Shown: in pieces, positions 595 through 62,950 of the stretch
Numbering within the stretch: the first letter of the stretch is position 1
How the letters are laid out: every line of letters starts with the position of its first letter
Assembly: GCA_017506865.1 (NCBI GenBank)
Contig: JAFCMP010000510.1
Location: 186,001 to 250,000, forward strand
DNA: 64,000 nt
Direction of reading: 5' to 3'
From: Tribonema minus
Taxonomy: Eukaryota; Sar; Xanthophyceae; Tribonematales; Tribonemataceae
Translations under genes and position numbers: made by a program
The notes under the pieces: generated by a model
What the model saw: the letters and a program-made list of their open reading frames with translations, nothing else
Database searches by the model: none
Told to the model about the DNA's origin: nothing

Positions 595-1095
595 CGCCTT
601 CTTCAGGATGGCAAAAAGTGACTCAGCTGCGGCAACGCTCAGCTAGAGCAGGTATGTTCACATGAGTGCCTATACATACATATCTGCCACATGAAGAGCT
701 GGAGGATGATGAGCAGTGACTCAGCCGCGGCAATGCTCAGCTAGAGCAGGTTAATACACATGAGCTTTCTTGCACTTTTATACATACATACCTGCCATGT
801 GAAGAATTTCAAGGATGATGAGCTTATATTTTAATCTTTTTAAAGTGAAAAACCTCGATAAATTATTTTAATATATGAATGAATACATAGATACCTGCCA
901 CGTAATGAACTTGATGATGATGAGCAGTGACTCAGCTGTACCAACGCTCAGCTAGAGCAGGTACACATACACATGACACATGACTTTATACTTCAGGAAT
1001 ATAAGCAGTGACTCAGCTTCAGCCACGCTCAGCTAGAGCGGGTACATCCATCCATACATACCTGCCACGTGAAGAACTTGAGGATGATGAGCTTA
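595..1095 (-). repeat. Donor-edge tandem copies of exon 1146-1262
   Basis: About five degraded copies of the 3' end of the exon at 1146-1262 and its donor (on the plus strand, variants of atacctgccatgtgaagaac followed by gatgatgagcagtgac) lie downstream in the transcript, at about 1053, 890, 788, 685 and 600. A second block, gctcagctagagcaggt, recurs at about 640, 740, 948 and 1030. No copy is open long enough to be an exon. Confidence 0.75.
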
Positions 1096-1145
1096 TATGA
1101 TTTTAAACTAAATAAACTATTTACAAAACATAAATACATACATAC

Positions 1146-4100
1146 CTGCCATGTGAAGAACTTGAGGATGATGAGCAGTGACATGGCGACGGTGACGACG
1201 GTCTCCGTGTCGCCCGCAACCTTGCGCGCAGCGTCGGTGTTGTAGACAGTCGGATCCTCTAGCTGCAATGGCACAGTGGCAGGCCAGCGCATTTGACATT
1301 TGTCATTTGAAGTACGTAAAGAAAACTTCACGTACATCAAACAATATCATGGGACCCCAATGTCACATGGCAGCAAGATTGAACATTGTCATCTAAAGCG
1401 CCACGCAGACTAGTCGAATTGCTTAATACACCTTGATGGAAGGTGATAGCTCTCAGTGGCGCTACTTAGTGTTAGGGTTAGGGTTAGGGTTAGGGTTAGG
1501 GCTAAGTTCCTGCCCAAGGACAGCAAGCTGCAGCGATGCAGACGCACGCCAGTGCATCTGACACTTTGCAACCAAACGCACAAAAAGTGTACGCCCTGCC
1601 TGGCGTGCTTCATAACGTTCACTCTTTTAAGACTCGGTCTGGCGATGCCTCTCAGCCTCCTGTGCGGCCTTTGCTAGTGTGCACTGGTGAACCCCAACCT
1701 AACTCTAATCCTAAGCTTCATCGTTGTTTCAACACTTAGCCTAAACTTCACCATGCTGCGCCATACGGTCATGATGCGAAAGCCAGGCGCAAGCGCCGTC
1801 GCAGCGCGGCTTGTACGCCAACCACTTCTGCAGGCGCAATTCAAGAAGTCTGGAAAAACAAGATCAAATTCAAGTTCAAGCACTGCGGTGATGCTCACGT
1901 CGTCGAACGCCCTGTCGTGCAGGTACCTCAAGCACACTTCAAGAATTCTGGAAGAACATCAACTTCAATTATTACACTTCAAGAATTCTGGAAGAACATC
2001 AACTCCAAGTTTATGTGCTGCGGTGACGCTCACATCGTCAATGGCTTTTGCGCGCGCGCCGCTGGCCAGGAAGCAGAGGTCGGGCACCAGCGACGCCGCT
2101 GCAGCAGCGCTCAGTATGTAGTAGAAGCGCCGTTCGCGCAGCGGCGCGTAGCTGTGGAGAAAGGGCGAGCAGGCGGCGACGGCAGCGGCAGCACTAGTGT
2201 AAGCAGCAGCAGCGGCGGCGGCAGCAACAGCCGCAGCAGCGGCGGCAGTAGCGGCAGCAGCAGCAGCGGCAGCAGCAGGGGCAGCAGCAGCAACAGCAGG
2301 TGCAGCAGCAGCAGCAGCAGCAGCAGCAGCAGCAGCAGCAGCAGCAGCAGCAGCAGCAGCAGCAGCAGCAGCAGCAGCAGCAGCAGCAGCAGCAGCAGCA
2401 GCAGCAGCAGCAGAAGGTCCCTCGTTGCCTCCCCGCGCAGGCACTGCACTAGGGCAAGAAATGTTGATGAATGGTAGCAGCAGCAGCAGCGGCAGCAGTA
2501 GCAGCAGCACCACCACCACCGCTAACGAATCTCATACACTGAAGTACGAATAAAAACAAATTACAGCGGACCTGTGCCTGGCCCCGTCGTTCAGCGCTTG
2601 CAATACCATCGGATCATCTTTGAAGTGGATTACCGATGGAGGTGTTGAGTTATGTGATTATGTTTGTCTCGCATGCATGCCACACTGGGTACATCATCTT
2701 CTGTGATGTGCATTTATACAGGGTATCATCTGTCCCTTCAGCTCCCGTCACCATGACTCAACCCGGCCTTCCACTTGTATACATTGCACATACCGCATGT
2801 CGAACGCCGTATGTAGGGCACTCCAGAACTACATGGCATCATGATGATAAACATGCATACACACATACACTACGTACCAACGATTGTATATGCTGCGTGC
2901 ATGGAGCTCTGCAGTACTACAGAGTGCAGGTGCATATCTGAGCCATTACCCGTGGGGCTTATGTGTACTCAACGTAGAAAAGCAATTGGCAGCCCGGCAC
3001 GTTTCACATCTGCGAGGACAAACTTTGGAAAAAGATCCAGCACTCACAGTGCTGTGTTGGTGGCAGCCCACAGGAAGCCTGCTGCCAGCATTGAGTTGTG
3101 CCTGCCAGCCAGCATACATACATACGGGGGGGGGGGGGGGGGGGGGGGGGGTCAGAGAGCGTGCGTCAGGAGATAACATTCAGCACAAGGTGGTGATCTC
3201 TGACATACACACTGCAAAGCCAAGCAATGCAGATGGCGATGCTCAGCTTTGCTATGCTTCCAGCCACCAACGCCGATACGTACATGGGAAGGGTAGAGTG
3301 AGTGCATTGCGAAACAGTATGCAGAGGCATTGCGAAACAGTATGCAGAGGCATGAGATGAGATGAAAGTAAACTTTACTTACTTCAACAGCAGCTGACGA
3401 CACCCTGGCTTCCCGGACACGGAGCGTAGTTGAAGGCTGGGTGCTAACGCTGCAGCGCAAACGGCAGTGCTCGTGAGGATGTTAGGGTTGTTGCAGTTTT
3501 ACAATCGAAATAACACGTCGGCTCTCCTCCGGCTACTCGACACTACATGGCTGTAAACTCCAAGTATGAACTCGAAGTACCGCACTGCCAAAGAGGGACG
3601 CGTGCTCTCACTTGGGAATGGAGGGGTAGAGGTCCAGCAGGAACGACAGCGCCAGCAGCGCCGTGCTGAGGTTGATGACGTAGGGGTTGGCCGCGACACC
3701 GTCCACCACATCCGCGGCGACCTCGACGACGGTGCGGCGGCGCTTCACGGCCACCGGCGTGTGCGCTGCGTTGCCCTCTTGTTCCTGCGGCTACGAAGGA
3801 GCGAAGGGGGGAGAGAAAGGGGGAGGGTGTCAACTGCTTAGCGTCGCGATCGAAGCTGATGCGCGTCATGCGCGGTGGATAACATATGGCTGGATGCAAT
3901 ACTGTAGGATGTAGCCTAATCCTAAACCTATCCTTACCCTAATCCTAACCCTAAACCACAGGGTTGGTGTTAGTGTTCGGGGTAGAATAAGGGGGGTAGG
4001 GACAGGCGGCGACTTCGACAACGGTGCGGTGGTTCCCCCTAACCCTACCCTAAACCTAACCCTAACCCTAGCCCTAACTCTAACCCTAACCCTAACCCTA

Positions 4101-62535: not shown

Positions 62536-62659
62536 CTGCGACACAGGTAGGTATGTATATCACGGCATCTCAACGTTATTAAGGTAAGCCAGGTGGCGCG
62601 GTCCTCTGTTAATGGTGCTCGAGAAATAACTGGCAAGGATTTGAACCGATACATGGGGC

Positions 62660-62950
62660 ATGCGATGCGCGCGCAGCTGCTTGCGGCGCCTGTGGAGCAC
62701 CTCCTTTGGGCACCTGAAGTAGTGCATGCGGGCTGGTCGCCTGCAACACAGTTACGTACGTACATCACAGCAGCTCAACAAGGCTTACAACACAAGTGAG
62801 GTGAGTTTGTCTCGATATTTGTTTTAGTGTACATAGATTACTCTTCAATATACTTGTTGCTTTTGCATCTCAGTTCTTACGGGGCATACATACATACATT
62901 TACGCCGGAAGTAATGCATACGGGTTGGTCGCCTGCGACGGGTGGGTACG
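62660..62950 (-). repeat. Acceptor-edge copies of exon 62382-62535
   Basis: Copies at 62678-62748 and 62895-62945 share gtagtgcatgcgggctggtc and the following acceptor. A linked upstream block containing a tRNA box B-like ggttcaaatcc is also duplicated (62600-62680 and 62970-63060). Confidence 0.8.

What the first reader, a model, noticed from the sequence alone, without database searches (positions are those of the whole stretch)
595..62950. Introns are built from tandem decaying copies of the neighbouring exon edge and its splice site
Seen directly: in three independent minus-strand genes, nearly every exon is followed in the transcript by 1-6 partial copies of its own 3' end plus donor, and/or preceded by 1-5 partial copies of its own 5' end plus acceptor (for example 32220-32309, 33615-33764, 35372-35533, 36553-36654, 59820-60001, 62382-62535). 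Copies are tandem with periods of about 70-200 bp and more diverged with distance. The complete exon is always at the outer side, so splicing must choose the outermost donor and acceptor and ignore all decoys. Inference: intron growth by repeated junction-centred tandem duplication, with selection keeping only the outermost sites active. I know of no named description of such a genome-wide pattern.
Basis: partly seen in the sequence, partly recalled or inferred. Interest (0 to 1): 0.92.

Follow-up and report, generated by a model that had tools for sequence, protein, structure and literature searches.

The report
Introns filled with copied exon edges
In the yellow-green alga Tribonema minus, many introns contain up to six decaying tandem copies of the neighbouring exon's edge, each with a near-intact splice site that the cell evidently ignores, and these decoys seem to have misled at least one public gene model.

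Summary
The window lies on the 829,668-base contig of Tribonema minus. In 8 genes, 37 of 87 exon edges have a copy in the adjacent intron on the predicted side; wrong side 1, inverted 0, other genes' introns 0 of 1,533. Copies sit about 150 bases apart and keep GT in 37 of 45 and AG in 33 of 36, with near-normal splice-site scores. "Nearly every exon" is too strong: genes range from 4 of 4 edges to 0 of 15. Outermost sites are used where checkable: homologues of gene A and a transcript-type EukProt relative of gene B, which crosses all four junctions without a decoy. The GenBank model of gene B appears to contain six decoys (128 extra residues). Best explanation: recurrent short tandem duplication; events inside exons are purged, edge-spanning ones tolerated because exon definition and selection keep the outer sites. 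A uniform-duplication null gives 24-54% edge families unless repeats fill the introns, against 39 of 50 observed, so duplication seems biased to exon edges roughly 5-20-fold; cause unknown.

The parts
39309..39395 (-). Gene A (FemAB/BioF2-like acyltransferase) exon 1; its 5' limit is not established
   Evidence: homolog alignment
37897..37989 (-). Gene A exon 2
37286..37462 (-). Two 3'-edge (donor) copies of gene A exon 2 (37414-37462, 37286-37330)
36553..36654 (-). Gene A exon 3
36739..37044 (-). Three 5'-edge (acceptor) copies of gene A exon 3, 128-bp spacing
35372..35533 (-). Gene A exon 4
34961..35215 (-). Two donor-edge copies of gene A exon 4
35756..35800 (-). Acceptor-edge copy of gene A exon 4
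   Evidence: three further, weaker ones
33615..33764 (-). Gene A exon 5
33001..33492 (-). Donor-edge copies of gene A exon 5 (33443-33492 at 96%, 33001-33032)
33821..33961 (-). Two acceptor-edge copies of gene A exon 5
32220..32309 (-). Gene A exon 6
31903..32165 (-). Three donor-edge copies of gene A exon 6, ~105-bp spacing
32380..32408 (-). Acceptor-edge copy of gene A exon 6 (29 nt, 100%)
31492..31571 (-). Gene A exon 7; donor-edge copy 31270-31306
30474..30582 (-). Gene A exon 8; donor-edge copy 30196-30222
29793..29831 (-). Gene A exon 9 (39 nt); whole-exon copies 29695-29733 and 29597-29635
28685..28831 (-). Gene A exon 10, no edge copy found
27456..27623 (-). Gene A exon 11; donor copies 27289-27323, 27091-27138, 26848-26875; acceptor copy 27828-27871
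62382..62535 (-). Gene B exon 1; donor copies 62229-62258, 62062-62094, 61949-61983; acceptor copies 62692-62741, 62903-62933
61445..61700 (-). Gene B exon 2, no copies
61141..61270 (-). Gene B exon 3; donor copy 60929-60978
59820..60001 (-). Gene B exon 4; donor copies 59693-59742, 58173-58214, 57990-58042, 56879-56927; acceptor copies 60126-60175, 60350-60395, 60567-60606
55586..56014 (-). Gene B exon 5 with stop codon; acceptor copies 56176-56200, 56370-56416 and a weaker one near 56550
55015..55622 (-). Repeat family that includes the gene B CDS end and copies of it in the 3' flank
   Evidence: (by eye)
1146..1262 (-). Gene C exon; its model rests on coding bias and splice sites only
684..1092 (-). 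Four donor-edge copies of the gene C exon
56345..61007 (-). Six decoys that GenBank protein JKP88DRAFT_350107 contains as coding sequence: 60930-61007, 60328-60393, 59693-59743, 58169-58219, 56514-56552, 56345-56416

Best explanation
Short direct tandem duplications (spacing about 100-220 bp) keep arising in this genome. Those inside an exon, or containing a whole exon, alter the protein and are lost. Those spanning an exon edge leave the coding sequence unchanged as long as splicing uses the original, outermost site, so they persist and decay neutrally inside the intron. Splicing can still find the right sites because the true acceptor and donor flank the shortest possible exon: recognition across the exon (exon definition), backed by purifying selection, picks them over near-intact decoys. 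Duplication is also biased toward units that include an exon edge, probably because one breakpoint tends to fall in exons. SHOWN: tandem, directional, edge-spanning copies in several genes; largely neutral decay; near-intact decoy sites; outermost sites in the gene B transcript-type protein and in homologues of gene A. INFERRED: purge by selection, exon definition, exon-linked breakpoints.
For: Direction and specificity: 37 of 87 edges own side, 1 wrong side, 0 inverted, 0 of 1,533 other introns; 53 ab initio coding segments: 19 5'-upstream and 19 3'-downstream, against 4 and 5 on the wrong sides and 0 of 212 inverted. In genes A and B a whole exon is copied only for the 39-nt exon. Neutral decay: exon part 89% identical real-to-copy (43 pairs) and 83% copy-to-copy (34 pairs), so by a simple star-tree reckoning copies change about three times faster than exons; 10 of 43 carry frameshifting indels. 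Decoys: median donor score 5.6 against 6.3 real and -1.2 background GT. Outermost sites used. Edge bias: 39 edge and 11 intron-only families against 24-54% expected in 12 uniform parameter sets with coverage below 0.9; 60 of 98 families overlap coding segments against 35.3 by circular shift, 0 of 1,000 shifts as high.
Against: No RNA reads could be examined. Two CCT genes and the ribosomal gene show few or no copies at the threshold used. Mismatches between exon and copy are concentrated at third codon positions (38, 37, 107), more than simple neutrality predicts, though serial copying from an evolving exon explains part of it. Intron parts of the same units look more diverged (60-74% identity) than exon parts, partly because the exon part was chosen by local alignment. 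The edge bias rests on a simplified simulation, and no single bias factor fits both measures: 10-20-fold matches the family fraction but gives 58-69% of edges with a copy, against 43% observed over the 8 genes; 5-fold gives 47% of edges but a family fraction of 0.60. GenBank's model includes six decoys; if RNA supported it, the decoys would not be silent.
Confidence: 0.62

Rival explanations
1. Tandem duplication is uniform along the genome; edge copies stand out only because the exon partner is conserved, so old copies remain visible, while intron-only copies decay on both sides.
For: Tandem families also occur away from detected coding segments (38 of 98; some of those segments are surely missed exons); the stop-codon end of gene B is copied; copies decay roughly neutrally.
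Against: Simulations with conserved exons and purge give edge-family fractions of 0.24-0.54 in 12 uniform parameter sets with repeat coverage 0.28-0.86; 0.79-0.90 is reached only with coverage 0.92-0.93, while observed intron coverage is 0.04-0.53. Binomial P for 39 of 50 is 2e-6 at p=0.45 and 6e-4 at p=0.55.
Confidence: 0.22
2. The copies are functional: alternative splice sites or small alternative exons, or decoys kept to regulate splicing.
For: GT kept in 37 of 45 and AG in 33 of 36, near-normal scores; GenBank JKP88DRAFT_350107 includes six of them; third-position excess.
Against: Use of a decoy would shift frame in 32 of 45 and 22 of 36, about the chance two-thirds; 10 of 43 contain frameshifting indels; the transcript-type relative and two T. 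minus paralogues lack every decoy.
Confidence: 0.08
3. Introns were created by tandem duplication of exonic AGGT segments (Rogers model), and the copies are footprints of intron birth.
For: Tandem duplication is the same mutation type; the model is described in PMC4974935 and PMC2891723 (passages read).
Against: The copies carry the junction itself with intron sequence beyond it, and several lie in series (up to 6) within one intron, so an existing junction was duplicated.
Confidence: 0.03
4. Assembly artefact or wrong gene models.
For: Gene C and parts of the CCT models rest on coding bias and splice sites.
Against: Copies differ from their exon by 0-24% and are gene-specific; gene A and B models are supported by independent proteins; the same pattern shows in Pfam matches that use no gene model.
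Confidence: 0.02

Closest known systems
[quoted passage not shown] Hellsten 2011; potato RdRp, PMC4974935; Drosophila, PMC2891723). Passages of the two PMC papers read; Rogers and Hellsten only as cited there
   Same: Short tandem duplication in genes, tolerated because splicing hides it
   Different: There a new intron arises from duplicated exon sequence; here an existing junction is copied, repeatedly, and the intron gains decoys
Ubiquitous internal gene duplication (Gao and Lynch 2009; cited in PMC4974935, paper itself recalled)
   Same: High rate of within-gene duplication touching splice sites
   Different: No directional arrays of partial exon edges with the outermost site in use are described in what I read
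Tandem exon duplication and mutually exclusive exons (recalled)
   Same: Exon sequence duplicated into a neighbouring intron
   Different: Here copies are partial, usually carry only one of the two splice sites, and some carry frameshifts
Patch-mediated break repair giving tandem duplications in plants (Vaughn and Bennetzen; Schiml; recalled)
   Same: Direct duplications of tens to hundreds of bases
   Different: No preference for exon edges that I recall
Introners (PMC9860276, search listing only)
   Same: Bursts that reshape intron content genome-wide
   Different: Here each copy derives from its own neighbouring exon, not from a dispersed family (0 of 1,533 in other genes' introns)

Membership tests
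Local tandem duplication | Copies in direct orientation close together | tested here: met
   287 forward <1 kb, 4 inverted, 1 at 3-4 kb; median spacing 149
Intron gain by tandem duplication (Rogers) | New intron lies between two copies of an exonic AGGT segment | tested here: not met
   Copies carry the existing junction plus intron sequence and form series inside one intron
Intron gain by tandem duplication (Rogers) | Intron absent from relatives at that position | not testable with these tools
   No relative's DNA was available to me
Tandem exon duplication / mutually exclusive exons | Complete exon with both splice sites duplicated | tested here: not met
   In genes A and B only the 39-nt exon 9 of gene A is copied whole
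Introners | Same element in introns of many genes | tested here: inconclusive
   Exon-edge probes found 0 of 1,533 matches in other genes' introns; intron-to-intron similarity was not scanned
Patch-mediated break repair | Origin from staggered nicks, with microhomology or filler at breakpoints | not tested
   Breakpoint sequences were not analysed; most copies look too diverged
Exon definition | Splice sites chosen by pairing across the exon | not testable with these tools
   Needs minigene or RNA data

The most novel reading that the evidence does not exclude
A mutational process tied to exons (their chromatin, transcription or repair) duplicates exon edges some 5-20 times more often than intron interior, so that many introns in this alga grow largely as graveyards of the adjacent exon's edge, and splicing works despite arrays of almost normal decoy sites because exons are recognised as units.
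Probability: 0.4. Interest if true: 0.86.

Novelty: new variant of a known kind. Interest (0 to 1): 0.72.

Why it matters
It gives a natural experiment on splice-site choice: nearly identical sites in series, with the one used known in the cases checked. It points to a route of intron growth distinct from transposon insertion and from intron gain. It also warns that gene models in such genomes can absorb decoys as coding sequence, as one GenBank protein here appears to (128 extra residues of repeated peptides). The edge bias, if it holds, would tie exons to a local duplication process that I did not find described.

Tried and rejected
Rejected: telomere-repeat capture at duplications (TTAGGG/CCCTAA 1.12 per kb inside units, 1.51 in the rest of introns). 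Rejected: protein-level constraint on copies, since 10 of 43 have frameshifting indels and the third-position excess has a serial-copying explanation, though some excess remains unexplained. Not claimed: that decoy exon parts are specially conserved; copy-to-copy exon parts are 83-85% against 60-72% for intron parts, but the exon part was chosen by local alignment. Led nowhere: an ankyrin-ORF search for the species (no T. minus name in the 120 rows listed), a PDB search, an early guess at Haematococcus, papers on Tribonema, and a recalled DOI for the genome note (not held).

Weak spots in my own tests. A first null run (edge fractions 0.27-0.45) was replaced. In one search the RPS15 boundaries were one or two nt off, so its 0 of 4 is a lower bound (boundaries mended; the exon 3 acceptor copy is visible and scored 30). 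Three exons were added to two CCT genes by coding bias before the count. Of the 11 'intron-only' families, two abut a coding end and one is a pair of exon 4 copies of gene B. The stop-codon test chose the longest frame: for gene B it took the stop of the first copy, and for L028 a doubtful frame, so only L025, L027, RPS15 and the ankyrin gene are valid there (none, weak and low-complexity, none, none); the gene B case rests.

Literature searches for the pattern showed no description of it in the rows listed; lists were capped and most subscription papers are not in that library.
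Full report
What was checked. The finding claims that introns in three minus-strand genes are built from tandem decaying copies of the neighbouring exon's edge with its splice site. I read the genes directly and assembled exons at the outermost sites.

Where it comes from. Gene B's best-scoring match is JKP88DRAFT_350107 of Tribonema minus, listed on a contig of 829,668 bases. 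That is the length of contig C507, on which the window lies. A second T. minus protein, P0243, matches C507 exon by exon at 84-99% at 293884-298631. I conclude that the organism is T. minus, a yellow-green alga (lineage). The genome held is 158.18 Mb in 554 contigs.

Gene models. Gene A (39395 to 27456) is a FemAB/BioF2-like acyltransferase: Pfam FemAB_like E=1.7e-104 on the nine exons first joined; 11 exons, 409 residues, 49-65% identical to eight listed proteins. In the alignment, 6 of 10 junctions (1, 3, 4, 7, 9, 10) have no gap within six residues in any protein present there; junctions 2, 6 and 8 have a small gap nearby (6 has none against the closest protein, P0001); junction 5 lies in a loop of variable length. 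None calls for decoy sequence. Gene B (62535 to 55586) has no Pfam match. P0242, a EukProt entry with a Trinity-style transcript name (species not shown), is identical at 368 of 378 aligned residues and crosses all four junctions with no decoy; the five gap columns are four at the N terminus and one near the C terminus. Two T. minus paralogues (P0243, P0244) also lack the decoys. Gene C is one exon supported by coding bias and splice sites only.

The public gene model. P0241 (JKP88DRAFT_350107, 506 residues) has 128 residues more than gene B from the shared start methionine on. They are decoy peptides, found at 60930-61007, 60328-60393, 59693-59743, 58169-58219, 56514-56552 and 56345-56416. 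I cannot see whether RNA supported that model; the relative and the paralogues suggest that it is wrong.

More than chance. In gene A, 60-nt exon-edge probes scored above every other intron of the gene and all shuffles on 7 of 8 donor sides and 4 of 8 acceptor sides; the eighth donor side (30) beat the shuffles (at most 21) but not one other intron (48) (first nine exons, some boundaries off by one or two bases). Over 198 kb, local forward repeats were 287 against 4 inverted and 1 at 3-4 kb, covering 17.8% of bases. For 53 coding segments found by codon bias, 5' edges were copied upstream 19 times and downstream 4, 3' edges downstream 19 and upstream 5, with 0 of 212 inverted. Some of those segments are retroelement frames or are copies themselves.

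Homology-anchored test. I added five CCT chaperonin genes found by PF00118 (56 matches) and fetched, and a ribosomal S15/uS19 gene. CCT junctions were set from profile positions and splice sites. Of 87 edges 37 have an own-side copy (score 34 or more), 1 a wrong-side copy, 0 inverted, and 0 of 1,533 comparisons with other genes' introns reach the score. By gene: L025 5/12, L026 1/11, L027 0/15, L028 8/11, L029 4/4, A 13/21, B 6/9, RPS15 0/4 (boundaries slightly off there; its exon 3 acceptor copy scored 30).

Without gene models, Pfam match tables show the same rule: 8 three-prime partial copies downstream and 5 five-prime partial copies upstream of a fuller match, none on the wrong side, 3 unclassifiable; I set aside 7 pairs that compare copy with copy, one of them of the wrong-side kind. 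The SNF2-type gene on C548 has four successive downstream copies.

Anatomy. In genes A and B the copied exon parts are 9-93 nt, and no exon is copied whole except the 39-nt exon 9 of gene A. At the 22 edges with two or more copies (65 copies), spacing is 100-218 (10th-90th percentile), median 149, 60 of 65 between 70 and 250; nearer copies tend to be more similar (44 against 20, 11 ties, p=0.01) (from numbers printed). Up to six copies occur at one edge.

Decay and splice sites. Exon parts are 89.2% identical real-to-copy and 83.3% copy-to-copy, so copies change about three times faster than the exon if they radiate as a star. Ten of 43 copies have a frameshifting indel. Decoy donors are GT in 37 of 45, decoy acceptors AG in 33 of 36; median scores are donors 5.6 (real 6.3, other intronic GT -1.2) and acceptors 5.0 (real 5.9, other AG -0.5). 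With exon-part identity near 0.9 this retention is about what neutral decay gives. Using a decoy would shift the frame in 32 of 45 and 22 of 36 cases, close to the two-thirds of chance.

Results that fit less well. Exon-to-copy mismatches are 38, 37 and 107 at codon positions 1, 2, 3; copy-specific singletons 28, 22, 46; exon-specific 1, 1, 6. Serial copying from an exon that evolves at third positions explains the direction; the size is somewhat larger than I expect. Intron parts of the units look more diverged than exon parts, which may reflect how they were aligned. Gene to gene, the load of copies differs strongly, without an explanation.

Is the edge special? In the eight genes 39 repeat families touch an exon and 11 do not (36 and 14 before three missed exons were added). 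A simulation of uniform tandem duplication with purge, substitution, indels and conserved exons gives edge fractions of 0.24-0.54 in the 12 parameter sets with coverage below 0.9, and 0.79-0.90 in the two sets where repeats cover over 90% of introns; observed coverage is 0.04-0.53. Raising the rate for exon-containing units 5-, 10- and 20-fold gives 0.60, 0.68 and 0.70-0.77, but 0.47, 0.59 and 0.58-0.69 of edges with a copy against 0.43 observed, so I give the bias only as roughly 5-20-fold. Circular shifts over all sampled stretches: 60 of 98 families overlap coding segments, 35.3 expected, none of 1,000 shifts as high (the ankyrin family was dropped). I therefore favour an edge bias. It is not specific to splice junctions: the CDS end of gene B, with its stop codon, is repeated in the 3' flank (by eye; family 55015-55622). 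The same was weak in L027 and absent in L025, RPS15 and the ankyrin gene.

How it most likely works. Tandem duplications arise often. Those inside exons or containing an exon are removed by selection. Those across an edge are harmless only if the outermost site is used; recognition of the exon as a unit does this automatically, because the true acceptor and donor bound the shortest candidate exon. I infer exon definition and exon-linked breakpoints; neither was tested.

Against what is known. Tandem duplication as a source of new introns is established (PMC4974935, PMC2891723; passages read). There, duplicated exon sequence becomes an intron. Here, existing junctions are copied and the intron gains decoys. 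Seven literature searches showed no account of this pattern in the rows listed. I rate it a new variant of a known kind.

Noticed in passing
window 11687-20512 and 50696-53353, minus: A 2,941-codon open frame with a weak reverse transcriptase match (RVT_1, 27.9 bits against a cut-off of 29.6) and a shorter, by eye near-identical second copy: probably a retroelement.
   Followed up: partly
genome-wide and in introns of the window: TTAGGG tracts are very common, also away from contig ends (3,848 and 4,719 overlapping matches to a 21-mer on the two strands).
   Followed up: partly
introns of the eight genes: The hexamer CTTCAA/TTGAAG is 5-7 times more frequent than a random pair (2.35-3.69 per kb against about 0.49) and by eye often forms short palindromes.
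   Followed up: no
window 41072-42697, plus: Single-exon ankyrin-repeat gene with an 81-base (27-residue) repeat; no edge copies at its start or stop.
   Followed up: partly
contig C507, 101-337 kb: Gene B belongs to a local family of paralogues on the same contig.
   Followed up: no
L027 and L026: Two CCT genes almost free of edge copies (0 of 15, 1 of 11 edges) while others are full of them: the duplication load differs strongly between genes, for reasons unknown.
   Followed up: no
G000 contigs C334 and C112: Two rbcL-like fragments, each with one stop codon, in large contigs: possibly plastid-derived insertions.
   Followed up: no
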